From Phycisphaeraceae bacterium (lineage in GTDB: Bacteria; Planctomycetota; Phycisphaerae; Phycisphaerales; UBA1924): a DNA stretch of 32,027 nt. The notes below the pieces were generated by a model. That model saw only the letters and a program-made list of their open reading frames with translations. It ran no database searches and had not been told where the DNA came from. How positions within the stretch are numbered: position 1 is the first letter of the stretch; every line of letters starts with the position of its first letter. Position numbers and translations under genes: made by a program. The stretch covers positions 1 to 32,027 of the forward strand of contig JAJTHN010000031.1 of NCBI GenBank assembly GCA_021297895.1. Reading direction: 5' to 3'. Positions 1,371 through 19,373 of this stretch are shown piece by piece.

Positions 1371-1376
1371 TACGTT
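1371..1376 (+). promoter_or_regulatory. -10-like element, probable leaderless promoter
   Basis: TACGTT preceded by G and followed by CCCCGC, with exactly 6 nt to the ATG at 1383. No Shine-Dalgarno is possible in that gap. The spacing matches a -10 box whose transcription start is the start codon. No -35 of the TTGACA type is evident. Confidence 0.45.
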
Positions 1377-1382
1377 CCCCGC

Positions 1383-2639
1383 ATGAATCAACCGCAAGCG
1401 AGCATGGGTGTGCGTGCACGAGGGATGCTGGTCGCCGCGGCGGCGCTGGGGGCGGCGCTTTGTCTGGCGGGGGTGGGGGGGTGGGGCGCGGGGTCGTGCG
1501 GCATCGCTTCCGCGCTGGCCGGGCCGCTGGAGCCGCCGCCCGGCCCGGTCTCGGCCACGGGCAAGACGCTCGCGGAGATCGAGCCGCGGACGGTGATCAA
1601 CCTCGCCAACACCCCCGGGGACGCCAACAGCCTCTTCCGCATCAGCGCGCCGGGCTCGTACGTGCTGGCCGGGAACGTCACGGGCGTCTCGGGCAAGTCG
1701 GGGATCGAGATCGCCGCATCGAACGTGACGATCGACCTGATGGGCTTCGACCTCCGCGGCGTGACCGGCTCGCTCGGCGGGATCGTCAGTTCCGGCAGCA
1801 TCACGAGCATCGAGATCCGCAACGGCACGGTCGGCTCATGGGGCAACGGCGGGGTCAACATCGGCGGCAACGGCGTGTTCGTGTGCAGGAACATCCGCGC
1901 GATCGGCAACACGGGCTTCGGCATCTCTTTCGACACCGGCCACATCGAGGGCTGCATCGCCGCCAACAACACCGGCATCGGGATCCGCCTGAACCAGGGC
2001 GGGACCATCACGCGGTGCCTGGCCAGCGCCAACGGCGGCGTGGGGATCAGCGGCGGGATCATCAGCGTGATCACCGAGTGCTCGAGCCACTCCAACACCG
2101 GCGTGGGCATCTCCGCCACCGGGAGCAGCATCGTCTCGCGGTGCACGAGCCAGCAGAACGGCGGCGCGGGCTTCCTGATCGACTTCGCGAGCATTCTGAC
2201 CGACAGCGCCTCCCGCTTCAACACCGGCGCGGGCATCGAGGCCCGCAACGGCTCGACCGTCCGCGGCTGCACCGCCGACCGGAACAGTCAGGAGGGCATC
2301 CTCGCCGCGAGCCGGTCGATGATCATCGGCAACAGCCTCTCGGTCAACGGCCAGGACACCACCACGCAATCGGCGGGCGTCCGCGTGACGGGGTCGGACA
2401 ACCGCATCGAGGGCAACAACATCGCGTTGAACGACATCGGCATCCGCGTCGAGGCCGCGGGCAACATCATCCTCGGCAACACGTGCTCGGGGAACACGGT
2501 GAACAACTACGACATCGCCGCGGACAACGTCTACGGGCCGATCGTCGATCGCCGGACGCCCGGGAGCCCGGTCGTGGTCGGGCACAGCGCCGCCAGCACG
2601 ATGGGCTCGACCGACCCGCACGCGAACTTCTCGTACTGA
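1383..2639 (+). CDS. Secreted right-handed parallel beta-helix protein
   Basis: A 418-residue exported protein of unknown substrate. Residues 1-47 form a signal peptide (Arg-containing n-region, Ala/Leu/Gly core about 14-34, cleavage perhaps near 46). Residues 58-100 hold a Thr-Leu-Ala-Glu-Ile-Glu-Pro-Arg segment that I associate with planctomycete beta-helix proteins. From about 100 onward there are PbH1-type coils rich in N-x-G-I-G-I patterns, as in pectate-lyase-like exoproteins and NosD-like domains. Cys residues recur at 168, 191, 212, 233, 254 and 296, with Ser at 275, so the coils are almost exactly 21 residues long and Cys stacks at one position. The protein could be a polysaccharide-binding or -cleaving protein or a structural surface protein; no catalytic set is recognised. 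An in-frame ATG at 1404 is an alternative start, but the -10-like box 6 nt before 1383 favours 1383. Confidence 0.85.
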   Translation: MNQPQASMGVRARGMLVAAAALGAALCLAGVGGWGAGSCGIASALAGPLEPPPGPVSATGKTLAEIEPRTVINLANTPGDANSLFRISAPGSYVLAGNVTGVSGKSGIEIAASNVTIDLMGFDLRGVTGSLGGIVSSGSITSIEIRNGTVGSWGNGGVNIGGNGVFVCRNIRAIGNTGFGISFDTGHIEGCIAANNTGIGIRLNQGGTITRCLASANGGVGISGGIISVITECSSHSNTGVGISATGSSIVSRCTSQQNGGAGFLIDFASILTDSASRFNTGAGIEARNGSTVRGCTADRNSQEGILAASRSMIIGNSLSVNGQDTTTQSAGVRVTGSDNRIEGNNIALNDIGIRVEAAGNIILGNTCSGNTVNNYDIAADNVYGPIVDRRTPGSPVVVGHSAASTMGSTDPHANFSY

Positions 2640-2653
2640 TCGCCGGGCGGGCC

Positions 2654-2691
2654 GGGCCGGGCGGGGACGGGCCGGGCGGGGACGGGCCGGG
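2654..2691. repeat. Short GC-rich tandem repeat between convergent genes
   Basis: Two perfect 15-bp copies of GGGCCGGGCGGGGAC (2654-2668 and 2669-2683) and a partial third copy (2684-2691) fill the 52-nt gap between the beta-helix gene and the convergent dehydratase gene. No hairpin with a T-run is seen, so this is not a classical terminator. It may be simple slippage expansion. Confidence 0.8.
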
Positions 2692-4440
2692 TCATTGGCC
2701 GGGCGTGTCGGGATTGATCGCGCGGACCATCTCCGGCACGTGGCGACGGATCAGCGCCAGCACGCCGGCCTTGTCGGCGCTGGGGCTGCGGACGGCCGAG
2801 AGCTCGGCGATCATGCGCATCGCGCTGGTGCGGTCGATGCGCGCTGTCGGCGCGGTCCAGACGGTCACGCCCGGGTGGGCGGTCGCGGCCAGTTGCTCGG
2901 CGCCGTAGCCGAGTTCCTCGTAGAGCTTCTCGCCCGGCCGCGCGCCGGTGAAGACGATCGTCGCGATGCCCAGCTCCAGCGGGCTCATGCCCATCGCCAG
3001 CGCGCGCGCCTGGTCGGGGCTGAGCGGGTCGCTCTCCGGCAGCGGCGATGCTTCCAGCGCCGCGCGTGCCGCGGCGGGGATGCTCGAAGCGTCGATCCGC
3101 ACCAGCACCCCGTGAAGCCGCGCAAAGCGGGCGGCCAGGTCCACGATCCGCAGCGGAGAGCCCATGTCCAGCACGAACACCGGCGCGCTGCCCGCATCGG
3201 CGTGCAGGGCCGCGGCGGACATGACCAGGCCCGCCGCCTCGGGGATCGTCATGAAGTACCGCGTCATCCGCGGATCGGTGACGGTGATCGGCACGCCCTC
3301 GGCCAGTTGCTGGCTCCAGACCGGGATCACCGAGCCCGCGCTGGCCAGCACGTTGCCGAAGCGCACCATGCTGCAGAGCGTCGGCCCCGTGTGCGCAAGG
3401 CTGGAGACGTACAGCTCGGCCAGTCGCTTGGTCGCCCCCATGACGCTGGTGGGGTTGACGGCCTTGTCGCTGGAGATCATCACGAAGCGCTCGGCCCCGG
3501 CGGCCAGCGCCGCATCGGCGATGCTGCGCGTGCCGAAGAGGTTGTTGCTCACCGCGTGGGCCGGGTGGTCCTCCATCAGCGGCACGTGCTTGTGCGCCGC
3601 GGCGTGAATGACCACCTGCGGGCGATGCTCCAGGCAGAGGCGCAGGGTCTGGTCGGCGTCGACGACATCGTGCAGCAGCGCGCTGCGGGCCACGCCCGGG
3701 AAGCGACGGGCCATCTCGTGATCGATCTGGAACAGCGCGTTCTCCGATCGCTCCATGAGCAGGAGCCGCTCGGGCTCCAGCGCCGCGCAGACGCGGGCCA
3801 GCTCGCTGCCGATGCTCCCGCCCGCCCCGGTGATGAGCACGCGCTTGCCGCGGATGATCCGCCGCACCGCCGGCTCGTCCATCCCGTGGTGCGATCGGCC
3901 GATGAGCGCGACGGGGTCGATCGTTGGCGCGCTCTGGCGCGGCACGGCAGGCCCGGCGCCCGTCGCGGAGCCGGCAGCGCTGCGCGCCGGGCTCGCGGGG
4001 CTCGCGGGCGCGCCGGCTGCCGGCGAGACGTGCGTCACGCCGGCGCCGGACAGGACATCCTCGAGCGTCGGGACCCAGCGGGCATCGAGCGAGAGCATCG
4101 AGAGATGACGCGAGACCAGCCGCACGCTCTCGCCCAGCGAAGCGCCGAGACTGACCAGCGCCAAACGGAAGCGGTGGCGGGCGTGAAGCGCGGGGAGGTC
4201 ATCGATGGTGCCGAGGATCGGCGGCAGGGCGGGGTCGGGGGTTGCGGTCGGCGCGGGGGTATCGAGAATCACGCCGACGATGATCGGCGGGCGTTCCAGT
4301 GCCGCGGCTTGAAGGGCCATGGCCCGCGCGCTGGCGAGCGTGCCGATGAGCACCAGACCTGTGGTTGGGCCGGCCGCGGGCGTGGTCGGTGGGCCGCTGG
4401 GGGGCATCAGGATGTCGGTAGGGCCGAGAATGGTGGGCAT
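2692..4440 (-). CDS. CapD/FlaA1-type nucleotide-sugar 4,6-dehydratase, soluble form
   Basis: A 582-residue member of the polysaccharide biosynthesis (CapD/WbpM/FlaA1) branch of extended short-chain dehydrogenases. This branch makes 4-keto-6-deoxy sugars from UDP-HexNAc for capsule, O-antigen or glycans. Residues 198-213 are the NAD(P)-binding Rossmann loop (ITGAGGSIGSE). H-A-A-A-H-K-H-V-P at 279-287 is the family signature. S324-D325-K326 with M334 and K338 match the variant catalytic set in which Met replaces the usual Tyr. The long members of the family have four N-terminal membrane spans, and these are absent here. Residues 1-125 instead look like the soluble N-terminal nucleotide-binding-like domain (GTIDDLPALHARHRFRLALV), followed by a Pro/Ala/Ser-rich linker at 140-175. 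The enzyme is therefore probably cytoplasmic. It is divergent from ruvA. No clear SD precedes the ATG. Confidence 0.9.
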   Translation of the reverse strand: MPTILGPTDILMPPSGPPTTPAAGPTTGLVLIGTLASARAMALQAAALERPPIIVGVILDTPAPTATPDPALPPILGTIDDLPALHARHRFRLALVSLGASLGESVRLVSRHLSMLSLDARWVPTLEDVLSGAGVTHVSPAAGAPASPASPARSAAGSATGAGPAVPRQSAPTIDPVALIGRSHHGMDEPAVRRIIRGKRVLITGAGGSIGSELARVCAALEPERLLLMERSENALFQIDHEMARRFPGVARSALLHDVVDADQTLRLCLEHRPQVVIHAAAHKHVPLMEDHPAHAVSNNLFGTRSIADAALAAGAERFVMISSDKAVNPTSVMGATKRLAELYVSSLAHTGPTLCSMVRFGNVLASAGSVIPVWSQQLAEGVPITVTDPRMTRYFMTIPEAAGLVMSAAALHADAGSAPVFVLDMGSPLRIVDLAARFARLHGVLVRIDASSIPAAARAALEASPLPESDPLSPDQARALAMGMSPLELGIATIVFTGARPGEKLYEELGYGAEQLAATAHPGVTVWTAPTARIDRTSAMRMIAELSAVRSPSADKAGVLALIRRHVPEMVRAINPDTPGQ

Positions 4441-4564
4441 GGTGGCGGGCGATCGGCCCGCAGAGGAGTTATCGGCTGGATTCGGGCGCGCGTGCGAAGA
4501 TCCCGGCCTCGGGGCGGAAGACGGCTTGCAAGTGTGGGTTCTGTCGGGTGCGTGTTCGGGGCAC

Positions 4565-4570
4565 TATGCT
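4565..4570 (+). promoter_or_regulatory. -10-like element, probable leaderless promoter of ruvA
   Basis: TATGCT with 6 nt (CGGGAC) before the GTG start at 4577. There is no SD in the gap. The same element and spacing occur before several other genes in the window. Confidence 0.45.
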
Positions 4571-4576
4571 CGGGAC

Positions 4577-5320
4577 GTGATCGCCCGCATCTGCGGCCAG
4601 CTTGAGCATGTCGACGCCGAGCCCCCGGCCTCGGCGATGATCCGCGTGCCGATGGGCGAGGCGGAACTGACGCTCGAGGTGCTGATCCCGTCTTTCCTGA
4701 GCGCGGCGCTGGCGATGAGTCAGGGTCAGCGGGTGGAACTGCACACGCTGACGCACTTGGAGTCGGTGAATCAGGGGGCGAGTTTCACGCCGCGGCTGCT
4801 GGGGTTTGCCACGCCCGAGGATCGGCGGTTCTTCGAACTGCTGACGACGGTCAAGGGCATCGGCCCGAAGAAGGCGCTGCGGGTGATGGCCGAGCCGGTG
4901 GCCAAGATTGCGCTTCTGATCGAGCGCGGCGACGCCAAGGGGCTGTCCGGTCTGCCGGAGATCGGCAAGCGCATGGCGGAGACGGTGATCGCGGAACTCA
5001 AGGGCAAGTGCGTGTCATACGCCGCGGCGGCGGTGATGGACGGTGCGGGAACGGGCGGCACGACTGCGGGGGGTTTGTCGGCCTTTGGGGCTCGAAAACC
5101 CGCCGACTCTGGGGCTCGATTGCCGCCCGTGCAGCGCGATGCGGTCGAGGCGTTGGTGCGGATGGGGGATGTCCGGGCAGAGGCCGAGCGCAAGGTCGCG
5201 CGGGCCGTGGAGCGGTTGGAGGGTCGGGCCGATGCGGGGTCCGGACCCGGGGGCGCGGCCGAGCGCGAGCTGGATGTTGAAGTTGTGCTGCGTGCGGTCT
5301 TCAGCGGCGGGGCAAACTGA
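4577..5320 (+). CDS. ruvA: Holliday junction branch migration protein RuvA
   Basis: RuvA binds four-way DNA junctions as a tetramer and loads the RuvB motor for branch migration in recombination repair. The GTG start is chosen because the product then begins M-I-A-R-I-C-G, as family members do; earlier in-frame starts would overlap the divergent dehydratase gene. Domain I (OB fold) spans about residues 1-64. Domain II carries two helix-hairpin-helix motifs, around 86-104 (T-V-K-G-I-G-P-K-K-A) and 122-144 (L-P-E-I-G-K-R-M-A). After a Gly/Ala-rich linker (148-180), the RuvB-contacting domain III is seen at about 183-213 (VQRDAVEALVRMGDV). At 247 residues it is somewhat longer than the usual ~200 because of the linker and a C-terminal extension that includes an acidic stretch. 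No ruvB or ruvC lies in the window, so the genes are not clustered here. Confidence 0.93.
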   Translation: MIARICGQLEHVDAEPPASAMIRVPMGEAELTLEVLIPSFLSAALAMSQGQRVELHTLTHLESVNQGASFTPRLLGFATPEDRRFFELLTTVKGIGPKKALRVMAEPVAKIALLIERGDAKGLSGLPEIGKRMAETVIAELKGKCVSYAAAAVMDGAGTGGTTAGGLSAFGARKPADSGARLPPVQRDAVEALVRMGDVRAEAERKVARAVERLEGRADAGSGPGGAAERELDVEVVLRAVFSGGAN

Positions 5321-5381
5321 ACGATCAACAAGAAGGATGAGCGCACGCAGCCGCGCGCGGACGGCCCGTTGGCCGCGGGTG

Positions 5382-5387
5382 TATGCT
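5382..5387 (+). promoter_or_regulatory. -10-like element upstream of manC
   Basis: TATGCT, preceded by GTG and followed by CCCGCG, closely matches the elements at 1371 and 10207. The mannosyl-phosphate transferase gene starts only at 5506, which would give a leader of about 110 nt. The first AUG in that leader (5397) is followed directly by UGA. Confidence 0.35.
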
Positions 5388-5505
5388 CCCGCGCCGATGT
5401 GATCGGACCGGTCGTGTTCGGCGATGATGACGGCTTGCGCGATGTTGATGCCCGTGCCCCTGACCACCGCTTCTTCACCACCCGCCCAGGATAGAGCCTC
5501 CTCCG

Positions 5506-6627
5506 ATGCGCTACGCGATGATCATGGCCGGCGGTGCCGGCACCCGACTGTGGCCGATGAGTCGGCTGGACCGGCCCAAGCAGCTGCTCAACCTCATCCG
5601 CGGGGGCGATGCGCAGGCCAAGAGCCTGCTGCAGGTCGCCGCGGAAAGGGTCGATGGGCTGGTGCCGGAGAAGCACCGGTACATCTGCACGGGCGAGGGG
5701 TATCGCGCGGCGGTGCGCAGCGCGCTGCCCGCGTTCACCGATGAGCGCATCCTGGGCGAGCCGGCGGCACGGGACACCGTCAACGCGGTGGGCTTCACCG
5801 CGGCGGTGCTGCACAAACTCGACAAGGACGCGATCTTCGCGGTCTTCACGGCGGATCACGTCATTGAGCCGGTGGATGTGTTCAAGCGGTGCGTCGAGGC
5901 GGGTTTCCGGCTTGTGGAGGCCGACCCGTCGCGGCTGGTGACCTTCTCGATCAAGCCGACGTATCCGGCGACGGGGTTCGGGTACATCGAGCGAGGGCCG
6001 GCGGTGCACGGGGTTCGCGGGGCCGAGGGCCTTGCGTACTCGGTGGCCAGGTACGTCGAGAAGCCCAACATCCAGCGTGCGCAGGCGTATGTCGAGAGCG
6101 GGATGTTCGGCTGGTCCAGCGGCATGTTCGTCTGGAAGGCCGCGACGGTGCTCGAGTGCATCAAGCGCTACAAGCCCGAGAGTTACGAAGGCCTGATGAA
6201 GATCCAGGCCGCGTGGGGCACGAAGGATCAGCAGAAGGTGCTCGCGGAGGTGTACCCGACGCTGCCGAAGATCAGCGTGGACTATGCGATCATGGAGCCG
6301 GCCAGCACGGACCCGAAGGTGCACGTGGCGACGGTGATCATGGACCTGAACTGGCTCGATGTCGGCTCGTGGCCGAGTTATGCGGAAACTCTGGCGGCCG
6401 ACAAGGACGGCAACCGCGTGGGCGGGGAGCTGGATGCGGGCCACGCGCTGGCGGTGTCGACAAGGAGCAGCACGATTGTTTCCAGTGATCCCAAGCACAC
6501 GATCGCGCTGCTTGGGTGCGAGGACCTGATCGTTGTGCACACGCCGGAGGCGACGCTGGTCATGCCGCGGGCCCGTGCGGAGGAACTCAAGAGCCTGCAC
6601 GCGCTGGTGAGCGATCGGCTGAAGTGA
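5506..6627 (+). CDS. manC: Mannose-1-phosphate guanylyltransferase
   Basis: A 373-residue nucleotidyltransferase that makes GDP-mannose from GTP and mannose-1-phosphate, the donor for mannosylated glycans and the precursor of GDP-fucose or GDP-rhamnose. The pyrophosphorylase signature is at residues 8-25 (AGGAGTRLWPMSRLDRPKQL, with the catalytic Arg and Lys). The signature K-P-T-Y-P-A-T-G-F-G-Y-I-E follows near residue 149, and a Val-Glu-Lys-Pro sugar-binding motif is near 186. The length fits the monofunctional form. The C-terminal phosphomannose isomerase cupin of the bifunctional AlgA/ManC type is missing, and only a short beta-helical tail remains. No strong SD precedes the ATG. A membrane protease gene follows 46 nt downstream and may be co-transcribed. 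Confidence 0.93.
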   Translation: MRYAMIMAGGAGTRLWPMSRLDRPKQLLNLIRGGDAQAKSLLQVAAERVDGLVPEKHRYICTGEGYRAAVRSALPAFTDERILGEPAARDTVNAVGFTAAVLHKLDKDAIFAVFTADHVIEPVDVFKRCVEAGFRLVEADPSRLVTFSIKPTYPATGFGYIERGPAVHGVRGAEGLAYSVARYVEKPNIQRAQAYVESGMFGWSSGMFVWKAATVLECIKRYKPESYEGLMKIQAAWGTKDQQKVLAEVYPTLPKISVDYAIMEPASTDPKVHVATVIMDLNWLDVGSWPSYAETLAADKDGNRVGGELDAGHALAVSTRSSTIVSSDPKHTIALLGCEDLIVVHTPEATLVMPRARAEELKSLHALVSDRLK

Positions 6628-6673
6628 TGGTGGGTGTGCCCGCAGTGCGCCGGAGGCGCATCAGGATCATCGC

Positions 6674-8284: not shown

Positions 8285-8326
8285 ACCGGATGCGTCCCGG
8301 CGCGAGCGAGGCGCGGTGGCAGCGTC

Positions 8327-9202: not shown

Positions 9203-9213
9203 CGCGGCTTGGG

Positions 9214-9219: not shown

Positions 9220-9306
9220 TCCCGGGGTTGAGGCGGTCATCGTGATCGCCTGCGGCCGGATCGGATTGGGGCGAGCGGGAAACAGGGACCGGGGGATCTG
9301 ATCGCG

Positions 9307-9312
9307 TACGCT
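9307..9312 (+). promoter_or_regulatory. -10-like element of the glycosyltransferase gene
   Basis: TACGCT preceded by G, with 8 nt before the ATG at 9321 and no SD in between. This implies a leader of zero to two nucleotides. Confidence 0.4.
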
Positions 9313-9320
9313 CGTCCGTC

Positions 9321-10118
9321 ATGCCCGACCTGAGCGTCGCCATCGTCTGCTGCAACAACGCCGCCACCATCGGGCGGACGCTCGAATCGGTCCGCGGCAT
9401 GGCCCGGGAGATCGTCGCCGTCGACGGCGGATCGACCGACGGCACGCTCGATCTGCTCGCCCAGCACAACGCGCGCATCGTGAGCAGCCCCTGGCTCGGG
9501 CATGTCCGCACCAAGCAACTGGCCCTGGATCACTGTGCCGGTCCGTGGGTGCTGTGCCTGGACAGCGATGAGAGCGCCGAGCCCGAGCTGCGCCGCAGCA
9601 TCGAGCGCGTGCTCGCGAGCGAGATCGCCGCGGACGTCGCCGGCTTTGAGATCAACCGCAAGGTGTTCTACGCCGGAGCGTTTCTGCATCACGCCTGGCA
9701 GCCCGAGTGGCGGCTGCGACTGGTGCGGCGCGGGCGCGTGCGATGGGGAGGCGTGGATCCGCATGACGGCTTGCGTGTCGAGGGCGAGCCCGGCCCTTCG
9801 CGGGTCATCAGGCTCGATGGCGACCTTCGCCACGATTCGATCGACTCCATCAGCGAGTTTCTCGGCAAGCAGGTGCAGTACGGCCGCATCAGTGCCGCGG
9901 GCTTGCACGCGATGGGCGTGCGAAGCGGGCCGGCCCGCCTGCTGATCTCGCCCGCGGGGGCGTTCGTCAAGCAGTTGGTCCTCAAGCGGGCGTTTCTTGA
10001 TGGATGGCGCGGCTGGCTGGCCGCGGCCAGCGCAGCGACCGCGGCACTGGCCAAGCACGCGGCGCTGATCGAGCTCCAGCGTCGCGCTCCCGATCATCGC
10101 CGCGATGCGGACCGGTGA
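9321..10118 (+). CDS. Family 2 glycosyltransferase, WaaE/LPS-core type
   Basis: A 265-residue GT-A glycosyltransferase. Residues 4-25 give the beta-alpha-beta start (LSVAIVCCNNAATIGRTLES). The nucleotide-binding V-D-G-G-S-T-D-G-T motif follows at about 34-42. The metal-binding D-S-D-E-S is near residue 76. Downstream residues (R-L-R-L-V-R-R-G and W-G-G-V-D-P-H-D) match the acceptor half of WaaE/KdtX-like LPS inner-core glucosyltransferases. The C-terminal part (about 205-260) is amphipathic and basic, fitting membrane attachment. It is divergent from the Kdo-kinase-like gene, and the two together suggest inner-core LPS modification. The exact donor sugar cannot be read from the sequence. Confidence 0.88.
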   Translation: MPDLSVAIVCCNNAATIGRTLESVRGMAREIVAVDGGSTDGTLDLLAQHNARIVSSPWLGHVRTKQLALDHCAGPWVLCLDSDESAEPELRRSIERVLASEIAADVAGFEINRKVFYAGAFLHHAWQPEWRLRLVRRGRVRWGGVDPHDGLRVEGEPGPSRVIRLDGDLRHDSIDSISEFLGKQVQYGRISAAGLHAMGVRSGPARLLISPAGAFVKQLVLKRAFLDGWRGWLAAASAATAALAKHAALIELQRRAPDHRRDADR

Positions 10119-10206: not shown

Positions 10207-10212
10207 TATGTT
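10207..10212 (+). promoter_or_regulatory. -10-like element, probable leaderless promoter
   Basis: TATGTT preceded by G and followed by CCCGCT, then the ATG at 10219: exactly 6 nt with no SD. Nearly identical to the sequence before the beta-helix gene. Confidence 0.45.
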
Positions 10213-10218: not shown

Positions 10219-11037
10219 ATGCGATTCGTGTTCATGGGCACGGGAACCTCCGCCGGAGTGCCGATCATCGGCTGCCGATGCGAGGTCTGTCTCTCGCCCG
10301 ATCCGCGCGACAGGCGACTGCGTACCGCCGCGTGCGCGATGTTCATCGATGCGCACGGTCGCGAGCGTGTTGTGCTCCTTGATGCGGGGCCGGATCTGCG
10401 GCAGCAGGCCCTGACGCTCGGGCTGAACCGGTGCGACGCGATCCTGCTGACGCACAACCACGTCGACCACATCTTCGGGCTCGATGAGGTCCGACGCTTC
10501 AACGCGCTGATGCGCGGGCCGATCGATGTCTTCGCCGATGAGCACACGATGCAGTCGGTCCGCCGCGTGTACATGCACATCTTCGAGCGCGAGCACAACG
10601 TCAACGATTCGTTCGTCGCGACGCTCATTCCGCATGTCGTGCGGCCGCTGGAGCCCTTCGAGACCTTCGGCCTCCGCGTCACGCCGATCCCGCTGCTGCA
10701 CGGTCGGCTGGAGATGCTGGGGTACCGCCTCGATGCCGGACCGGGCGTGAGCGATCCGGCGGGCGTGCTGCCGCTGGCGTACTGCACCGATGTCTCGGCG
10801 ATCCCGCCGCGGGCCTGGGGCGTGCTCGCGGGGGTGCGAACGCTCGTGCTCGATGCGCTGCGGCAGCGCCACCACCCGACGCACCTGACGATCGATCAGG
10901 CGATCGGCATCGCCCAGCGTGTCGGCGCCGAGAGCACGTACTTCGTGCACATGGGCCACGACGTGCTGCACGCGCGCGTGGCGGACGAGTTGCCCGACGG
11001 CATTATGCTCGCGCACGACGGCCTGACGCTCGGCTGA
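10219..11037 (+). CDS. PhnP-like metallo-beta-lactamase-fold hydrolase
   Basis: A 272-residue metal-dependent hydrolase of the MBL fold, probably a phosphodiesterase. Residues 1-15 (MRFVFMGTGTSAGVP) are the typical start. G-C-R-C-E-V-C (18-24) is the structural zinc cluster seen in PhnP-like members. T-H-N-H-V-D-H (78-84) is the H-x-H-x-D-H metal site. Further ligands are likely in L-L-H-G, C-T-D-V-S and the late V-H-M-G-H-D. PhnP itself cleaves cyclic ribose phosphodiesters in phosphonate use, but no other phn gene is nearby. A housekeeping role such as the related genes often found near lipoate or DNA metabolism is equally possible. It runs convergent to glmS with a 42-nt gap. Confidence 0.87.
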   Translation: MRFVFMGTGTSAGVPIIGCRCEVCLSPDPRDRRLRTAACAMFIDAHGRERVVLLDAGPDLRQQALTLGLNRCDAILLTHNHVDHIFGLDEVRRFNALMRGPIDVFADEHTMQSVRRVYMHIFEREHNVNDSFVATLIPHVVRPLEPFETFGLRVTPIPLLHGRLEMLGYRLDAGPGVSDPAGVLPLAYCTDVSAIPPRAWGVLAGVRTLVLDALRQRHHPTHLTIDQAIGIAQRVGAESTYFVHMGHDVLHARVADELPDGIMLAHDGLTLG

Positions 11038-11079: not shown

Positions 11080-12909
<1,830 letters not shown>

Positions 12910-13276
12910 GGTGATCGATCCAGAGAGGGGGTGGGGACGGACAGAGACGTGAGCGCAACAGTCAACCGCTCAGAGCCCATGGTACGAACATCGGCCCGCA
13001 ATTGGTCGCGCCGGCGGGCAGTTCCCGCCGACGTCTTGCAAAATCGACCATTCCGCCGGCCTTCATCCGGACCCGCCCGCAGAGGCGTCGAATCCCGGGG
13101 ATGGCCAACGGCATAATCGATGCCAGTCTCCGCGCAAGATGGGTGGAAGGGTATAAGAACTTTCCCTATGTGCGGGCGGGCGCATCGCCCACGATTCTCG
13201 CTAGTCTGCCGCTTAAGTCCCCCAGCGGTGGGGAGTAATCGCGAGGTTCGCGATCCATTCACACAGGGAGCGTCAG
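12910..13276. other. Divergent glmS/mscL intergenic region
   Basis: A 367-nt gap with no convincing gene; a 45-codon frame from 13101 has no SD and no recognisable character. For glmS, a minus-strand TACCAT preceded by CG lies at 12979-12984, which would give a leader of about 65 nt. For mscL, TATAAG at 13152-13157 is a possible -10 without a good -35. Two hairpins lie just before the mscL ribosome binding site. Confidence 0.5.
13218..13254 (+). promoter_or_regulatory. Two tandem hairpins in the mscL leader
   Basis: TCCCC (13218-13222) pairs with GGGGA (13230-13234) over a 7-nt loop. Immediately after, ATCGCGA (13238-13244) pairs with TCGCGAT (13248-13254) over a 3-nt loop. The second hairpin ends ten bases before the AGGGAG ribosome binding site (13265-13270). 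No T-run follows, so it is not a classical terminator. It could affect mRNA stability or translation start. Confidence 0.4.
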
Positions 13277-13726: not shown

Positions 13727-13873
13727 GCCCGGACCGGCTGCGTCCCCGAATCGGGTGTGTGGCCGGATTGCCGAACGGATGACCCCGCGGTTTGGTAAAC
13801 TCCGGACCGCCAGATGCCGCCCCCGGCGTCGGCGTGATGTGTGCTGCCCCTCTCAATGCTCCGAGGAGATCTC

Positions 13874-14374
13874 ATGCGCTCGAAGGACTGGGTGAACGTG
13901 CTGGTGGGGACGATCGCGGCGATGTGCGTGATTGTTCTGGTGGTTGTGATCGTCAACCGTGTGTCATTGGCACCCGGCGGGAGTCGGCAGACGATCATCA
14001 CCGGCGGCATCCGTCCTGAGAGCCGACCACTGGAGGTTTGGAAGGGATCGATGGTCGTGCGCCCGGGCGAGGTGGCGGACTTTGCCGTTGGCGTGTACAA
14101 CGACCGCCAGGGTCAGTACGCGTTGATCACGATGCCCGCGGGTCGGCTGGTGGGTGTGCCGCTGCAGGAGCCGCGGTTCGGGCCGCAGGGGATCAGTTTC
14201 GCCGTCGGCCGCGAGAGCGAGCCGCGGGAGTCGTGGGTCCGGTTCCAGTTCTCGCGAGAGGGCAACGGCGGTCAGGCCCGCGGCGTCGCGTTGCAGGCCG
14301 GACAGCGTTACGAGGCGATGATGGTGCGTGTGCCGTCGAACCAGATCGGCGATCTGGGCTCGGTCCAGCGCTGA
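13874..14374 (+). CDS. Single-span membrane protein of unknown function
   Basis: I do not recognise this 166-residue protein. The start at 13874 is preferred over an ATG 33 nt upstream because GAGGAG (13863-13868) is 5 nt away. Residues 1-6 are basic, 7-29 form one transmembrane helix (NVLVGTIAAMCVIVLVVVIV), and residues 30-166 are a soluble, probably extracytoplasmic, beta-rich domain with many Arg residues (for example V-V-R-P-G-E-V-A-D-F-A-V-G-V-Y-N). No Cys is present in the outer domain. A -10-like TAAACT preceded by GG lies at 13796-13801. It follows mscL by 147 nt on the same strand and converges on pheT. Confidence 0.75.
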   Translation: MRSKDWVNVLVGTIAAMCVIVLVVVIVNRVSLAPGGSRQTIITGGIRPESRPLEVWKGSMVVRPGEVADFAVGVYNDRQGQYALITMPAGRLVGVPLQEPRFGPQGISFAVGRESEPRESWVRFQFSREGNGGQARGVALQAGQRYEAMMVRVPSNQIGDLGSVQR

Positions 14375-14444
14375 TCGCCGGTCGGGCATCATCCGGTACG
14401 GGAACTCAAGCGGGTGAGGTGCTGCGCTCCGCGTGAAGCGGCGC

Positions 14445-16628
14445 TCAGGCCTTACCGCCGTCGCGCAGTTCGGCCTTCAGGTCGCTGCGGAGTTTCTGCA
14501 CGATCGCGTCGACCTGCGCGTTGACCTCTTCATCGCGGAGCGTTCGGGTCGGCTCGCGGAAGGTCATTCGCAGCGAGACGCTCTTCTTGCTCTCGGGAAT
14601 CGGCTTGCCTCGGAAGGTCGTGACGAACCGCACGTCCTCGAGCAGGCTGGCGCGCGTCGCCAGCACGCACGACTCGACCGCGTGCCACGTCACGCTCTCG
14701 GCGAGGATCAGCGACAGGTCGCGCTCGACTACGGGGAACTGCGGCAGGGCCTTGAGCCGCGTGCGCGGTGGGTAGCCGGCCAACAGCGTGGCGAGGTTCA
14801 ATTCCGCGAGCATGACCGGCGCGGCAAGGTCGAAGGCCGACTGTGCCGCGGGGCTGACGATGCCGAAGATCCCGAGGTTGCGGTCGCCCAGTTGGATCAT
14901 CGCGCTGGCGGCGGGGTCGAGACCCTTGATGGCGGCATGTGCGGGGATGGGGGCGATGATGCTCAGGCGTGCATCGGGACCGTGCAGCGATTGGGCGAGC
15001 GTGTCGATCACGCCGCGGATGAGCCGCACGCCCTGCTGGCGGCGTTCGTGATTGGTGCCGGTGGCGGGCAGATCGGCGAGCATCGACAGCACGCGTGTCT
15101 CGCTGGCACCGCGCAGGCCGTCCTGAGCGCGGCGCTCGGCGGCGGAAGCCTCGGCGGGCAACTGGTAGAAGGTGCTGGAGGTCTCGAAGAGCCGGATGCC
15201 GCCGTCGACGGTCGCGCGGGCATCCTGATTGCGCTTCCGGCATTCCAGCAGCGACGGCAGGACGCTGGGGCGGAGGATGTTCTCGCTGCCGCGTTTGTCA
15301 TCGCCGACGCTCATGAGTTGAGCACCGGGCACGCTGAAGAGGTTCGCCGCGGCCTTGGTGACGAAACTGAAGGTGATGGTCTCGAAGAACCCCGCGCCGG
15401 TGAGCACTCGGCCGAGTTCGCGCATGGCCAGTTCTTCGCCCTGCAGCGGGCCGACGCGGACGCTGACGACGTCGGGCGCGGGGATCTTGTCGTAGCCGAC
15501 GGTGCGCGCGACCTCTTCGATGAGATCGATTTCCAGCCGCTGGTCGGTGCGCGTCGAGGGCGAGCGCCACTGCGTGGCGCCGGCGCTCGCGCCGGCTCCG
15601 GCGTGCGCGAAGCCCTGCACACGCAGGGCCGCGTTGATCTGATCATCGGAGACGTCGGCACCGAGCATGTCGCGCACGCGCTGGGTGCGGAGCGGGATGG
15701 TCGGTGCGTCGGAAAGGGGCGAGCCGCCGGTGTCATCGAGCACGCCGGGGCAGACCTTGCCGCCGGCGATGGCCACGATGAGGGAGACCAGCCGCTGACG
15801 TGCCTCGTCGATCGTTCGCGGGTCGACGACGCGCTCGAAGCGGAACGACGAGTCCGTGCGGATGGCCAGCCTGCGGGCGGTTGTGCGGATGGCCACGGGG
15901 TTCCAGGTCGCGACCTCCAGCAGCACATCGGAGGTGGCGGCGCTGACGCCGGTGGCGCTGCCGCCCATGATGCCGGCAAGCGATACCGGCGCACCGGCAT
16001 CGGCGACGACAAGGTCGCCGGCGCGGAGCGGGCGGTCGGTGCCATCGAACAGGGCGAGTTTCTCGCCCTGCGTCGCCTTGCGTACGACGATCGCGGCCTT
16101 GCCGGAGGAGTCGCGCGACAGTCGAGCAAGGTCAAACACGTGCGAAGGCGCGCCCATTTCGGCAAGGACGAAGTTCGTCGCGTCGACAACGTTGTTGATC
16201 GAGCGCTGGCCGATGGCCGCGAGCCGATCGACGAGCCATGCCGGAGACGGGCCGACCTTTACGCCGCGGATCAGCGTGAGCGTGAAGCGCTTGCACAGAT
16301 CGGGCACATCGTTGCGGAGCGTGACGGCGGAGGCGATGTCCTCGCCCGTTGGTGTCGGGGCGGGCAGGGCCGGTGCGGCATCGCGGAGCGTCTGAACGCC
16401 GCCGCTGGCCGCGGCGATCTCGCGAGCGAGGCCGGCGTGGGCGAGGCAGTCGCCGCGGTTGCTGGTGACCTCGACATCCAGGCAGGTATCGCTCGCGCCG
16501 GAGGGTACCGCGACGGGCGTGGCGCTCTCGATGGGCAAGCCGGCAAAGGTCAGGGCGTGCTCGATGGCGTCGGCGCTGAGGCCGCCGGGGCTGAGCAGGT
16601 CATTGAGCCAGGAGAGTGAGGCCTTCAT
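14445..16628 (-). CDS. pheT: Phenylalanyl-tRNA synthetase beta subunit, short N-terminal form
   Basis: The 727-residue beta chain of PheRS, which with PheS charges tRNA-Phe and edits mischarged Tyr. Visible domains are the B1 start (MKASLSWLNDLL, residues 1-12), the B3/B4 editing domain at about 110-270 (G-Q-R-S-I-N-N-V-V-D-A-T-N-F-V at 140-154, H-V-F-D at 163-166), B5 at about 305-390 (E-V-A-R-T-V-G-Y-D-K-I-P near 372-383), the catalytic-like core at about 400-610, and the ferredoxin-fold anticodon-binding domain at 631-722 (F-P-V-V-E-R-D-L-S-L). The EMAP/OB-type tRNA-binding domain that E. coli PheT carries at about residues 40-150 is missing. Here G-L-P-I-E-S-A-T-P-V (31-40) runs almost directly into D-V-E-V-T-S-N-R-G-D. 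No pheS is adjacent. The start at 16628 is chosen for homology; an upstream ATG at 16664 adds 12 residues. Confidence 0.95.
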   Translation of the reverse strand: MKASLSWLNDLLSPGGLSADAIEHALTFAGLPIESATPVAVPSGASDTCLDVEVTSNRGDCLAHAGLAREIAAASGGVQTLRDAAPALPAPTPTGEDIASAVTLRNDVPDLCKRFTLTLIRGVKVGPSPAWLVDRLAAIGQRSINNVVDATNFVLAEMGAPSHVFDLARLSRDSSGKAAIVVRKATQGEKLALFDGTDRPLRAGDLVVADAGAPVSLAGIMGGSATGVSAATSDVLLEVATWNPVAIRTTARRLAIRTDSSFRFERVVDPRTIDEARQRLVSLIVAIAGGKVCPGVLDDTGGSPLSDAPTIPLRTQRVRDMLGADVSDDQINAALRVQGFAHAGAGASAGATQWRSPSTRTDQRLEIDLIEEVARTVGYDKIPAPDVVSVRVGPLQGEELAMRELGRVLTGAGFFETITFSFVTKAAANLFSVPGAQLMSVGDDKRGSENILRPSVLPSLLECRKRNQDARATVDGGIRLFETSSTFYQLPAEASAAERRAQDGLRGASETRVLSMLADLPATGTNHERRQQGVRLIRGVIDTLAQSLHGPDARLSIIAPIPAHAAIKGLDPAASAMIQLGDRNLGIFGIVSPAAQSAFDLAAPVMLAELNLATLLAGYPPRTRLKALPQFPVVERDLSLILAESVTWHAVESCVLATRASLLEDVRFVTTFRGKPIPESKKSVSLRMTFREPTRTLRDEEVNAQVDAIVQKLRSDLKAELRDGGKA

Positions 16629-16637
16629 AGGGCCAAG

Positions 16638-16643
16638 AGGGTA
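16638..16643 (-). promoter_or_regulatory. -10-like element of pheT
   Basis: On the minus strand TACCCT stands 9 nt before the ATG at 16628 with no SD in between, implying a leader of about two or three nucleotides. Confidence 0.3.
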
Positions 16644-16715
16644 GGAGAGCGGCCGCGGAGGCACCGGCGGGCACGTGCCGACCGCTCACTGCTACACCGG
16701 CGGACGAGTGGGGGG

Positions 16716-17057
16716 TCAGGGCTGTTGCGGCGGCGGGGACGCGGGTGGTGGGGCCGCGGGTGGCGGCGGCGCGATGACCTCGTCCGTCGTCGTTCGGCGG
16801 AGCAGCACGGTCTGGCCGTTGGGCAGCGTCGCGGGGCTTTCGGCAACACGCTGCTGCACAACGACCGCCGTCGGGGGTGGACTCGAAGGGGGCGTGTGGC
16901 CGTACGGAGCGTGAGGAGGCGGCGCGTTCGCGGGGGGCGATGCAGACGGGGGCACTGCGGCGGGCGGAGCCTGCGGCACCTGGCCTGCGCGCACATCGTG
17001 CTTGACCGCCATGCGGATGTGCCCAAAAAACTCGCCGAGGTTGCGCATCAAGCCCAT
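16716..17057 (-). CDS. Small proline-rich protein of unknown function
   Basis: A 113-residue protein, taken from the ATG at 17057. An ATG at 17144 would add 29 residues and overlap the divergent promoter region. The N-terminus MGLMRNLGEFFGHIRMAVKH is an ordered amphipathic helix. The middle (about 30-70) is Pro/Ala/Ser-rich and disordered. A short ordered segment near residues 80-98 (L-P-N-G-Q-T-V-L-L-R-R-T-T-T-D-E-V-I) reads like a conserved strand pair. A Pro-rich tail follows. It lies 87 nt upstream of pheT on the same strand. The pattern of two ordered patches in a Pro-rich chain argues for a real gene, but the function is unknown. Confidence 0.6.
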   Translation of the reverse strand: MGLMRNLGEFFGHIRMAVKHDVRAGQVPQAPPAAVPPSASPPANAPPPHAPYGHTPPSSPPPTAVVVQQRVAESPATLPNGQTVLLRRTTTDEVIAPPPPAAPPPASPPPQQP

Positions 17058-17134
17058 AGGTACGGCCGGCCTCGCGTTTGTGCCCTTCTGACCATCGCGC
17101 TGCACGCCAATGGTCGCAGCGGCAAACCGGCCAA

Positions 17135-17144
17135 AGGGTACCAT
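17135..17144. promoter_or_regulatory. Overlapping divergent -10-like elements at a GGTACC core
   Basis: Plus strand TACCAT at 17139-17144 stands 5 nt before the esterase ATG (17150), fitting a leaderless mRNA. On the minus strand TACCCT occupies 17140-17135, pointing toward the small proline-rich gene (leader about 70 nt). The two boxes overlap, so the promoters could not be occupied at once. Confidence 0.35.
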
Positions 17145-17149
17145 CGCCC

Positions 17150-18781
17150 ATGATCACGATCCCGATTCGTGGGGCGTTTGCTCTGGTTCTCTCGCTTCTG
17201 GTGACCGTCGGCGTCGCGTCGCCCGCTCAGGCGCAGACCGTGTTCCGCGTCACGCTCGCCCCGGGCGTTCTGGGCGATGCCCCGGTTGTCGCCGGGCGGC
17301 TCGTCGTCGCGCTGGCGCACGAGGACGCGAACATCTCAAGGCGTACCAGCCCGCTGGATGCCCCGTTCTGGGATGACCCTCAGCCGATCTTCGGCACCAC
17401 GGTGAGCATGAAGCCGGGCGAAGCCGTCATCGTCGATGATGCCGCGACGTCTTTCGCCAGCAAGCCCTCGGCCCTCAAGCCCGGGAGGTATCGGGCCGCG
17501 GCGTGGCTGGTCGCGAATCAGGCGACGAGCAAGTGGCGCGGCGTGCCGGGCAATGCGTACTCAGAAGTCGTGGAGTTCGTTGTCCCGGAGCCGCCGGGCG
17601 TGGGCGGGCCGGTCGATATCACCCTTGCGACCGCGACGCGCGAGCCCGAACGCCGATGGCGGCCGGGTCAGGTCGAGGAGTTCGTGGTGCGCGGCGCTCT
17701 GCTCTCGGCGTTTCATGGGCGAGAGGTGGTGCTCCGCGCGGGTGTGGTTCTTCCGGCGGGCGGCGTGCAGGAGGGTCGGCGGTACCCCGCGGTGTATCAC
17801 GTTCCGGGCTTCGGCGGACGGCACGATGAGGCCCTGAGCGTTCGGCGAGCCGTTGCCCGTGGCGATGGCGACCTGGACCGAAACGTGCTGCACATCTACC
17901 TCGATCCCGAGAGCCCCAACGGGCACACGCTCTTTGCCGACTCGGCCAACAACGGGCCGTGGAACCGCGCGCTGGTCGAGGAACTCATTCCCGCGCTGGA
18001 GAAGCAGTACCCGCTCATCAGCGAACCGACGGCCCGCGTGCTCCGCGGCCATTCCTCGGGCGGTTGGAGCGTCGTGTGGCTCGGCGTGAACAACCCGCAG
18101 ACCTTCGGCTTTGCGTGGAGCACGGCGCCGGACCCTGTCTGCTTCTCGTGGTTCCAACTCGTGGACATCTACCGCCGCGCGAACATGTTCGTGCCCGCTC
18201 CGGGCGAGCCTGTCGGGCCGGGTGATGCCGCCGGCGCCGACACGCCCAGTTATCGCCGCGGCGGGGCAATGAAAATGACCATCCGTCAGGAGGCGGGCGG
18301 CGAAGAAGTCCTCGGCCCCGACGCCACCAGTGGGCAGCAGTGGGCCAGTTGGCAGGCGGTCTTCGGCCCGCGCGATGATCGCGGGCGCATCGTCGAGCTC
18401 TTCGATCACGTCACAGGAGCGATCAACCCCGCGGTGCTCGATCACTACCGCGGCTACGACATCACGCACCTGCTCCGCACGCGCGGAGATGTGGTCGCCG
18501 ATCGGCTGATGAACCACGTGCGCATCATCGTGGGTGATGCCGACAACTTCTTTCTGGAACAGGCGTGCATGGCCCTGCGTGATGAGCTTCAGCCGCGAAT
18601 CGACGCGCGGCGCGCGAGCGGCAACACGCAGGAGGTGCCCGGCGGCGTGATCATCGTGCCGGGGCTGGATCACGGCAGCGTGTTCGGACATCCGAGCGTG
18701 CGTCGTATCCCCGCGGAAATGCTCGCGTACTTCCGTGCCGCGGGGCATGTCCCGCCGGCGGTCGATGAACCCAAGCCGTGA
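17150..18781 (+). CDS. Secreted alpha/beta-hydrolase (esterase-like)
   Basis: A 543-residue exported hydrolase of the EsterD/enterochelin-esterase-like alpha/beta class. A signal peptide is at 1-29 (hydrophobic core about 9-21, cleavage likely after A-Q-A). Residues 30-160 are a beta-rich N-terminal domain. The hydrolase domain begins near 190. The nucleophile elbow is G300-H-S302-S-G304, the acid is likely D463 or D465 in G-D-A-D-N-F, and the His is H508 in G-L-D-H-G-S. Residues 345-420 form a large insertion after the nucleophile that may act as a lid. The substrate is unknown; esterified plant or algal polysaccharides are a reasonable guess for this lifestyle. Only 10 nt separate it from the convergent pyrE. 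Confidence 0.85.
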   Translation: MITIPIRGAFALVLSLLVTVGVASPAQAQTVFRVTLAPGVLGDAPVVAGRLVVALAHEDANISRRTSPLDAPFWDDPQPIFGTTVSMKPGEAVIVDDAATSFASKPSALKPGRYRAAAWLVANQATSKWRGVPGNAYSEVVEFVVPEPPGVGGPVDITLATATREPERRWRPGQVEEFVVRGALLSAFHGREVVLRAGVVLPAGGVQEGRRYPAVYHVPGFGGRHDEALSVRRAVARGDGDLDRNVLHIYLDPESPNGHTLFADSANNGPWNRALVEELIPALEKQYPLISEPTARVLRGHSSGGWSVVWLGVNNPQTFGFAWSTAPDPVCFSWFQLVDIYRRANMFVPAPGEPVGPGDAAGADTPSYRRGGAMKMTIRQEAGGEEVLGPDATSGQQWASWQAVFGPRDDRGRIVELFDHVTGAINPAVLDHYRGYDITHLLRTRGDVVADRLMNHVRIIVGDADNFFLEQACMALRDELQPRIDARRASGNTQEVPGGVIIVPGLDHGSVFGHPSVRRIPAEMLAYFRAAGHVPPAVDEPKP

Positions 18782-18791
18782 GGCGAGCGGC

Positions 18792-19361
18792 TCAGGCTTC
18801 GATGCCCAGGTCGGCCTTTGTCAGCAGTGATTCGAAGTGAACGCCGGCGTGGGCGAAGGCCTGTGCCGCGCCCTCCTGCCGATCGATGACGGCGATGACG
18901 CCGAGCACCTTTGCGCCAGCGTCGGTGAGGATCTTTACGCCCTCGAGCGCCTGGCCGCCGGTGGTGGCGACGTCTTCGACGAAGATCACGTGCTCTCCCG
19001 GCACGAGTTGGCCTTCCATCTGCTTGGCGGTGCCGTAGTCCTTTTTGGCGTTGCGGACGAAGATGCACGGGATGCCGGTGGCCATGCACGCGGTTGTGAC
19101 CAGTGGGATGCCGCCAAGTTCCGCACCGGCCAGGCGATGAACGGGCAAGCCCGCGGCGGCACCGATGGCCCGGATGCGCTGGGCGAAGAGCAGCCCAAGG
19201 CCGCGGAGGATTTCCGGACGCGTGCTGAAGAGGTACTTGTCGATGTAGTAGGTGCTGGTGCGGCCTGAGCGGAGCGTGAAGTTGCCGCGGAGCACGCACG
19301 CGGAAGCAACCTGACGGGCCAACTCTGCCCGGTTGAGTTCGGTGGTCGGGGCGGTGGTCAT
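18792..19361 (-). CDS. pyrE: Orotate phosphoribosyltransferase
   Basis: PyrE joins orotate to PRPP to form OMP in pyrimidine synthesis. The product is 189 residues. The substrate-side motif G-N-F-T-L-R-S-G-R-T-S-T-Y-Y-I-D-K (26-42) is typical of bacterial PyrE. The PRPP-binding loop is V-I-F-V-E-D-V-A-T-T-G-G-Q (125-137), and the flexible catalytic loop with K-K-D-Y-G-T-A-K lies at 106-113. The start at 19361 gives the usual length; the frame stays open upstream without character. TACACT lies 6 nt before the ATG on this strand. No other pyr gene is in the window. An unusual AT-rich palindrome lies about 100 nt upstream. Confidence 0.95.
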   Translation of the reverse strand: MTTAPTTELNRAELARQVASACVLRGNFTLRSGRTSTYYIDKYLFSTRPEILRGLGLLFAQRIRAIGAAAGLPVHRLAGAELGGIPLVTTACMATGIPCIFVRNAKKDYGTAKQMEGQLVPGEHVIFVEDVATTGGQALEGVKILTDAGAKVLGVIAVIDRQEGAAQAFAHAGVHFESLLTKADLGIEA

Positions 19362-19367
19362 GAGCGG

Positions 19368-19373
19368 AGTGTA
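19368..19373 (-). promoter_or_regulatory. -10-like element, probable leaderless promoter of pyrE
   Basis: On the minus strand TACACT, preceded by CG, stands 6 nt (CCGCTC) before the ATG at 19361. No SD is present. Confidence 0.45.

What the first reader, a model, noticed from the sequence alone, without database searches (positions are those of the whole stretch)
1371..19373. Recurrent G-T-A-Y-N-N-T box 5-9 nt before start codons: leaderless transcription
Seen directly: TACGTT-6nt-ATG (1371), TATGCT-6-GTG (4565, ruvA), TATGTT-6-ATG (10207), TACCAT-5-ATG (17139), TACACT-6-ATG (pyrE, minus, 19373), TACGCT-8-ATG (9307) and TACCCT-9-ATG (pheT, minus, 16643). None of these genes has an SD in the gap. 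Similar boxes (TATGCT 5382, TACGCT 20390, minus-strand TACCAT at 12984 and 23462, TACCAT 19519, TAAACT 13796, TACGGT 210) lie 35-110 nt upstream of other genes, most of which do have an SD-like sequence. Established: a -10 box ends about 6-7 nt before the transcription start, so the first group would begin transcription at or next to the start codon. Base composition makes TA-three-T rare here: at one-third A+T, about 0.5% per position. Inference: two promoter classes share one -10 consensus, often followed by CCCGC-type sequence, and a clear -35 is mostly missing.
Basis: partly seen in the sequence, partly recalled or inferred. Interest (0 to 1): 0.75.

Follow-up and report, generated by a model that had tools for sequence, protein, structure and literature searches.

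The report
Leaderless genes in a planctomycete order
In this bacterium, from a little-studied group of planctomycetes, about a fifth of the genes seem to have their promoter directly against the start codon, so their messages begin with the first codon instead of an untranslated leader; this is known from other phyla, and here it goes with a strong removal of the promoter motif from inside genes.

Summary
Outside the window, starts chosen without upstream information give 38 of 220 genes with a box at 5-9 nt, against a shuffled mean of 2.1 and maximum of 6; over all 244 genes, gaps 0-4 and 10-13 are empty. The box is a promoter -10 element, not a translation signal: it also precedes untranslated RNase P RNA (27 of 29 genomes) and 18 of 30 tRNAs examined. 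Boxed genes rarely have Shine-Dalgarno sites, although relatives' 16S keeps the anti-SD. The layout is conserved at pheT, pyrE and ruvA across the order, not at glmS. No general -35 is seen. The peak is strong in the window's family, patchy in the order, and unclear in eight other planctomycete genomes. Unasked finding: TAnnnT is purged inside genes on both strands (ratio 0.41/0.48), but hardly in those eight genomes or four named controls; within the order, purge and peak do not always go together. Leaderless transcription is the best reading: a known kind in a lineage where my searches showed no report. No transcription start was mapped.

The parts
1371..1376 (+). -10 box TACGTT, 6 nt before ATG 1383 (right-handed beta-helix protein 1383-2639)
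4565..4570 (+). -10 box TATGCT, 6 nt before GTG 4577 (ruvA 4577-5320)
   Evidence: TIGR00084; box at 5-9 nt in 19 of 30 ruvA loci, own included
9307..9312 (+). -10 box TACGCT, 8 nt before ATG 9321 (glycosyltransferase family 2, 9321-10118)
10207..10212 (+). -10 box TATGTT, 6 nt before ATG 10219 (metallo-beta-lactamase-fold protein 10219-11037)
17139..17144 (+). -10 box TACCAT, 5 nt before ATG 17150 (putative esterase 17150-18781)
16638..16643 (-). -10 box TACCCT, 9 nt before ATG 16628 (pheT 14445-16628)
   Evidence: TIGR00472; box at 5-9 nt in 25 of 30 pheT loci, own included
19368..19373 (-). -10 box TACACT, 6 nt before ATG 19361 (pyrE 18792-19361)
   Evidence: TIGR00336; box at 5-9 nt in 21 of 23 close pyrE loci, own included
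210..215 (+). box TACGGT, 84 nt before ATG 300, which has AGGAG 8 nt upstream (leadered class)
   Evidence: sequence; the frame 300-1247 is open; the coding-only caller chose GTG 135 instead
5382..5387 (+). box TATGCT, 118 nt before ATG 5506 (sugar nucleotidyltransferase; leadered class)
12979..12984 (-). box TACCAT, 69 nt before glmS ATG 12909 (leadered class)
   Evidence: glmS has a box at 5-9 nt in only 1 of 30 loci
13796..13801 (+). box TAAACT, 39 nt before GTG 13841; start uncertain
19519..19524 (+). box TACCAT, 62 nt before ATG 19587 (leadered class)
   Evidence: the coding-only caller placed a doubtful TTG start at 19671
20390..20395 (+). box TACGCT, 42 nt before ATG 20438, which has GGAGG 13 nt upstream (Ser/Thr kinase; leadered class)
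   Evidence: the GTG 8 nt after the box is out of frame with the kinase
23457..23462 (-). box TACCAT, 46 nt before ATG 23410, which has GGAGG 6 nt upstream (ion channel; leadered class)

Best explanation
TAnnnT (consensus TAYNCT) is the -10 element of ordinary sigma-70-type promoters in this Phycisphaerales genome (Planctomycetota). In roughly a fifth of genes the element lies 5-9 nt before the start codon. RNA polymerase then begins at or within a few nt of the A or G of that codon, giving leaderless mRNAs read without Shine-Dalgarno pairing. Other genes use the same element with a leader, often with an SD. The -10 seems to act mostly without a -35, which would explain why TAnnnT is selected against inside genes on both strands. 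Shown by computation: positional enrichment, the same box at non-coding RNA genes, SD depletion, conservation across genera, no general TTGACA-type -35, in-gene avoidance. Inferred: the exact start sites, leaderless translation, sufficiency of the -10.
For: Gap profile over 244 genes: gaps 5,6,7,8,9 = 12,15,6,8,4; gaps 0-4 and 10-13 = 0. Held-out 38 of 220 against a shuffled mean of 2.14. RNase P RNA: box 1-11 nt upstream in 27 of 29 genomes with a locus; own tRNAs: 8-15 nt upstream in 18 of the 30 examined, of 45 found. SD-like sites of 4 nt or more: 4 of 45 boxed against 93 of 199 others, Fisher p 1e-6. Anti-SD: full 3' motif in 16 of 17 16S loci of the order; the 17th reads CACCTCCTT to the contig end. 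Orthologues, own included: pheT 25 of 30, pyrE 21 of 23, ruvA 19 of 30; glmS as contrast 1 of 30. In-gene avoidance ratio 0.41 sense, 0.48 antisense, and the middle bases most avoided are those promoters use. Tandem intergenic regions of five genomes of the family: 98 TAnnnT pointing at the gene against 50 away, p 1e-4. Positive control D. radiodurans MP1 shows the same peak, 7 boxes at 5-9 nt, 0-1 in the other four bins.
Against: No 5' ends are mapped, and gaps of 5-9 nt allow leaders of a few nt. In this genome's own RNase P locus the box is at 19 nt, not 5-10. Eleven of 30 ruvA loci lack the layout. Three boxed genes are within 30 nt of a same-strand gene upstream. The -35 test covers only TTGACA and flat logos; TTG 22-24 nt before the box in 6 of 45 near and 8 of 62 far sites, and one near site with a perfect TTGACA, hint that a minority has one. 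Avoidance does not track leaderlessness: D. radiodurans MP1 has the peak but ratio 0.92; G022 has a peak (13 of 81) but ratio 0.86/0.79; G026 and G028 have avoidance but hardly a peak. A control of 48 loci, mostly Bacteroidota, also has its highest bin at 5-9 nt (173 against 106-166), a mild excess of unclear meaning.
Confidence: 0.9

Rival explanations
1. The box is a translation signal in a 5' leader (for example an S1-binding or AU-rich enhancer) whose promoter lies further upstream.
For: It sits where an SD would, and boxed genes rarely have an SD. A 2017 survey left leaderless and/or S1 initiation open for Planctomycetes from a single genome (PMC5397173, passages).
Against: The same box precedes RNase P RNA and tRNA genes at promoter spacing, occurs 15-114 nt before other genes with a similar consensus, and is avoided inside genes on the antisense strand too, where no translation occurs.
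Confidence: 0.05
2. The boxes are leftovers of TA-poor composition and start-codon choice: a rare motif that falls near starts by chance or by biased start calls.
For: TAnnnT is rare in genes, so relaxed intergenic DNA looks enriched; upstream background is 0.0028 per position against 0.0006 inside genes.
Against: The peak is confined to gaps 5-9 with empty neighbours, starts were chosen without upstream data, shuffling gives at most 6 of 220 against 38, and orthologues keep it.
Confidence: 0.01
3. Short-leader rather than leaderless: transcription starts 2-5 nt before the codon in many genes, so initiation is on very short leaders.
For: pheT orthologues keep gaps of 7-9 nt (one odd locus 5) while pyrE orthologues keep mostly 5-7, which could place some starts upstream of the ATG.
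Against: The gap is poor in A (9%) and C-rich (50%), so the start codon's A is often the best purine; G is still 29%.
Confidence: 0.25

Closest known systems
TA-led (leaderless) genes of bacteria, Zheng et al. 2011 (PMC3160421; passages, and section 6 with table 2, read)
   Same: TANNNT a few nt before the start codon, no SD; mixed with SD-led genes; phylum means of 19-39% in Actinobacteria, Aquificae and Deinococcus-Thermus.
   Different: Table 2 has no Planctomycetes row (at most inside 'Other Bacteria', 8 of 20 genomes), and 'planctomyce' does not occur in the main text.
-10 region adjacent to ORFs in Deinococcus-Thermus, Zhong et al. 2025 (PMC12340547; outline, part 1 of 3 of Results, section 11 and passages read)
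   Same: TANNNT about 6-7 bp before the ORF, with a separate RBS-motif class; replacing the box lowers RNA, so it is a promoter there.
   Different: Different phylum. Commonest box there is TACACT; here TAYNCT. My MP1 control shows almost no in-gene avoidance. Their all-bacteria figure S7 is not readable here, so it may include Planctomycetota.
Leaderless transcriptome of Mycobacterium tuberculosis (PMC3898074; search listing and start of abstract only)
   Same: An extensive leaderless transcriptome in an actinobacterium; the listing counts TANNNT 12 times.
   Different: Starts were mapped experimentally there; none mapped here.
Selection against spurious -10 motifs, Froula and Francino 2007 (PMC1939733; abstract and section 6 read)
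   Same: -10 motifs over-represented in regulatory DNA and under-represented in coding DNA in 24 of 42 genomes (over-represented in 9).
   Different: Used E. coli hexamers; 'Planctomyc' and 'Rhodopirellula' not in the main text. The deficit here exceeds that of my 50-kb E. coli stretch (0.41 against 0.87).

Membership tests
-10-adjacent leaderless (TA-led) genes | TANNNT positioned so that transcription would start at the start codon | tested here: met
   45 of 244 genes at gap 5-9, none at 0-4 or 10-13; 38 of 220 held out
-10-adjacent leaderless (TA-led) genes | no Shine-Dalgarno site | tested here: met
   SD-like match of 4 nt or more in 4 of 45 against 93 of 199 other genes
-10-adjacent leaderless (TA-led) genes | the box is a promoter element | tested here: met
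   indirect only: same box before RNase P RNA in 27 of 29 genomes and before 18 of 30 tRNAs examined; orientation bias and avoidance
-10-adjacent leaderless (TA-led) genes | mapped 5' end at the start codon | not testable with these tools
   no transcript data
-10-adjacent leaderless (TA-led) genes | translation of the leaderless mRNA | not testable with these tools
   no translation data
Canonical -35/-10 sigma-70 promoter | TTGACA-like -35 at 16-18 nt spacing | tested here: not met
   4 or more of 6 matches in 4 of 45 near-box, 7 of 62 far-box and 3 of 27 RNase P sites; control offsets give 3-6, 3-6 and 0-4; a minority may have one (TTG at 22-24 nt in 6 of 45 and 8 of 62)
Bacteroidota-type promoter (TAnnTTTG; consensus recalled) | T at positions 5 and 6 of the box | tested here: not met
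   position 5 is T in 0.02 of near and 0.10 of far boxes
Loss of SD recognition by anti-SD loss | altered 16S 3' end | tested here: not met
   anti-SD present in the 17 full-length 16S loci of relatives examined, of 20 returned, one cut by a contig end just after CACCTCCTT; this genome has no 16S hit

The most novel reading that the evidence does not exclude
In Phycisphaerales the primary polymerase starts from the -10 hexamer alone. That one property would explain leaderless genes, the general lack of a -35 and the purge of TAnnnT from gene bodies on both strands, and it arose or was strengthened within this order of Planctomycetota independently of Deinococcota and Actinobacteria. Against it: purge and leaderless peak do not always go together within the order (G022, G026, G028), for which I lowered this from 0.4 to 0.35 on checking.
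Probability: 0.35. Interest if true: 0.65.

Novelty: new member of a known kind. Interest (0 to 1): 0.52.

Why it matters
It adds an order of Planctomycetota to the bacteria with many predicted leaderless genes. Gene finders that look for SD sites may misplace such starts. The strong avoidance of the -10 hexamer inside genes, which differs between lineages of one phylum, suggests a sequence-only measure of how far a lineage's polymerase can fire from a -10 alone. Why some lineages become rich in leaderless genes can then be asked within one phylum, where relatives do and do not show the trait.

Tried and rejected
Chance and start-call bias: rejected by the shuffles and the empty neighbouring gap bins. 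Translation signal: rejected by RNase P and tRNA genes. Loss of the anti-SD: not seen in relatives. A general -35 at 16-18 nt: not seen. In some searches and 43-style views of loci, minus-strand loci are not turned by the tool; one search read nine RNase P loci and five 16S loci on the wrong strand, which searches corrected. First-pass gene calls on GC-poorer genomes found too few genes; retrained models were used instead. Literature: ten searches ran, on Planctomycetes, Phycisphaerae, leaderless, TSS, GeneMarkS-2, SD, spurious promoters and Deinococcus deserti. Among the rows shown (lists were capped) none reported leaderless genes in Phycisphaerae. Supplementary files, including any GeneMarkS-2 species lists, were not consulted.
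Full report
What the window is. The window is bases 1-32027 of contig 65 of an 84-contig, 3.48-Mb genome. The best named GlmS hits are MAGs labelled Isosphaera sp. (83% identity) and Phycisphaerales bacterium (76% and 66%), so I place it in Phycisphaerales, Planctomycetota; the genome itself is unnamed. GC is 68% in the window and in the sample.

Observation. All 14 boxes are present. TAnnnT is rare: 41 sites on both strands, 0.00064 per position. I wrote a gene caller that chooses starts by coding score alone. On the window plus 20 stretches of the same genome (383 kb) it gave 252 genes, 244 with enough upstream DNA. Gaps of 5, 6, 7, 8 and 9 nt between box and start hold 12, 15, 6, 8 and 4 boxes; gaps 0-4 and 10-13 hold none. 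Without the window: 38 of 220 genes, against a shuffled mean of 2.14 and maximum of 6 in 300 shuffles. If any in-frame ATG/GTG from -90 to +45 is allowed, 56 of 244 genes have a box at 5-9 nt, against 1-14 in the other seven 5-nt bins.

Promoter, not translation signal. RNase P RNA is not translated. The box lies 1-11 nt before its modelled 5' end in 27 of the 29 genomes of the order that returned a match (31 searched), most often at 6-7; the two exceptions, this genome (19 nt) and G018 (25 nt), have it further up. Of 45 own tRNA genes, loci were returned for 30; 18 have a box 8-15 nt upstream. At RNase P genes the box is nearer TANAAT; at protein genes it is TAYNCT. RNase P genes of the rest of the class and phylum often have it as well: 21 of 27 and 19 of 30 loci with a box 1-11 nt upstream (I examined the 57 loci newly returned, of 60 and 115 genomes with a match). 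The -10 element is thus widely shared in the phylum.

SD and start codons. Boxed genes have an SD-like match of 4 nt or more in 4 of 45 cases, other genes in 93 of 199; shifted control windows give 63-75 of 244. Starts of boxed genes are ATG 35, GTG 9, TTG 1; of the others 117 of 199 are ATG (Fisher p 0.018). Of 20 16S loci returned I examined the 17 full-length ones: 16 have GGATCACCTCCTTTCT and the 17th reads GGATCACCTCCTT to the contig end. This genome has no 16S hit. Both modes therefore appear to coexist.

No general -35. TTGACA-like sites (4 or more of 6) at 16-18 nt spacing are about as frequent as at control offsets for near boxes (4 of 45; controls 3-6), far boxes (7 of 62; controls 3-6) and RNase P boxes (3 of 27; controls 0-4). 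Against this, one near box has a perfect TTGACA, and TTG begins 22-24 nt before the box in 6 of 45 near and 8 of 62 far sites, more than at most neighbouring positions, so a minority may have a -35.

Conservation. Box at 5-9 nt before an in-frame start near the aligned N-terminus: pheT 25 of 30 loci, pyrE 21 of 23, ruvA 19 of 30, own genome included. For pyrE, seven weak hits and two hits without loci were left out; for ruvA and pheT one genome each returned no locus. Two of these starts are far from the aligned one (pyrE L418, ruvA L374) and may be chance. A cruder alignment gives 18 for ruvA and the same for the others; there the other 5-nt bins hold at most 6, and the leadered gene glmS has 1 of 30 at 5-9 nt. 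Spacing is gene-specific: pheT mean 8.5 (24 loci), pyrE mean 6.4 (20 loci) (pheT L386 and pyrE L418 dropped; orthologues share descent, so the p-value is nominal).

Spread. Boxes in gap bins 0-4, 5-9, 10-14, 15-19, 20-24: own 0,45,1,1,2 (244 genes); family G043 0,11,1,1,1 (65), G057 0,7,0,0,1 (65), G015 0,7,1,0,0 (53), G010 2,11,1,0,1 (55); order G028 0,3,1,0,1 (60), G026 2,2,1,2,1 (83), G022 0,13,5,1,3 (81), G030 0,5,1,1,1 (58); other class members G032 1,2,1,0,0 (70), G047 7,6,8,11,11 (46), G076 3,2,10,10,6 (68), G070 1,3,1,1,5 (59); other phylum members G102 3,3,4,4,3 (58), G147 3,7,4,10,7 (53), G190 2,2,3,0,2 (64), G185 1,1,4,3,6 (56). So the peak is clear in the family and in G022, weaker or absent in other genomes of the order, and not clear in the eight others. 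About 100 kb per relative was read, so rates are rough. The named MAG L002 has 0,5,0,0,0 (15 genes). Controls: D. radiodurans MP1 0,7,1,1,0 (69), a positive control that works; M. extorquens 0,0,1,1,1 (44); C. necator 0,1,2,0,0 (29); E. coli 3,3,2,0,0 (37). A set of 48 other genome loci, mostly Bacteroidota, gives 106,173,121,122,156,166,127,131 for bins 0-4 to 35-39 (741 genes): a mild excess at 5-9 nt in AT-richer DNA.

In-gene avoidance (not asked). Inside genes, T at offset 5 after TA, compared with the mean of same-phase offsets 8, 11 and 14, has ratio 0.41 (95% 0.34-0.50) on the sense and 0.48 (0.39-0.60) on the antisense strand. Family genomes: 0.37-0.52 sense, 0.48-0.68 antisense. G028: 0.43 and 0.36. 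The three f5 genomes: 0.58-0.86 and 0.79-0.85. The eight other genomes of class and phylum: 0.84-0.96 and 0.89-1.00. D. radiodurans MP1 0.92 and 0.86, M. extorquens 0.95 and 0.91, C. necator 0.93 and 1.03, E. coli 0.87 and 0.86; L002 has too few sites to tell. Synonymous-codon shuffles agree in direction, though TA followed by other spacings is avoided there too, less strongly (own: TAnnnT 0.18, TAn6T 0.44). Which middle bases are avoided mirrors the promoters: at position 5, A and C are most avoided (0.32, 0.39) and T hardly (0.83), as T is nearly absent from near boxes. In five genomes of the family, convergent intergenic regions look depleted too (9 against 16 expected from control offsets, 0.56); gene-facing tandem regions are enriched (1.37) and their opposite strand depleted (0.70). 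I read this as selection against spurious promoters, strong because the -10 needs little else. Two results speak against a simple link with leaderlessness: D. radiodurans MP1 has the peak without avoidance (it is a plasmid with mobile genes, so the chromosomes should be tested), and within the order G022 has the peak with little avoidance while G026 and G028 show avoidance with hardly a peak.

What is known. Leaderless genes with TANNNT next to the start are established in Actinobacteria and Deinococcus-Thermus: Zheng 2011 (PMC3160421, passages and section 6), Zhong 2025 (PMC12340547, part 1 of Results, section 11 and passages). Zheng's table has no Planctomycetes row. Nakagawa 2017 (PMC5397173, passages) suggested leaderless and/or S1 initiation for Planctomycetes from one genome. 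The one paper that one search found with both 'leaderless' and 'Phycisphaer' (PMC10783764, passages) lists the class in a table of anti-SD types. Avoidance of -10 motifs in coding DNA is known in general (PMC1939733, abstract and section 6). The finding is thus a new member of a known kind; the strength of avoidance and its limits within the phylum are the less expected part.

Noticed in passing
genes of the window and 20 stretches of the genome (L082-L101): The -10 hexamer TAnnnT is strongly and specifically avoided inside genes on both strands (ratio 0.41/0.48), far more than in an E. coli stretch or eight planctomycete genomes of other orders and classes.
   Followed up: yes
L438, L440; L298-L302; L288-L297: Avoidance and leaderless peak come apart: D. 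radiodurans MP1 and G022 show the 5-9 nt peak with little avoidance, G026 and G028 avoidance with hardly a peak; unexplained.
   Followed up: partly
window 14445-16628: pheT has its own conserved promoter; no predicted gene lies directly upstream on its strand, so no pheS precedes it in the window.
   Followed up: no
L132-L160: RNase P promoters use a box nearer TANAAT, while protein genes use TAYNCT; the sites may differ in strength.
   Followed up: partly
L378-L430: Box-to-start spacing is gene-specific across the order (pheT mostly 7-9 nt, pyrE mostly 5-7 nt).
   Followed up: partly
G001, G006, G027 (16S hits): Three relatives' 16S matches stop near model position 873 or 902, some near contig ends; probably assembly breaks, possibly an insert.
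   Followed up: no
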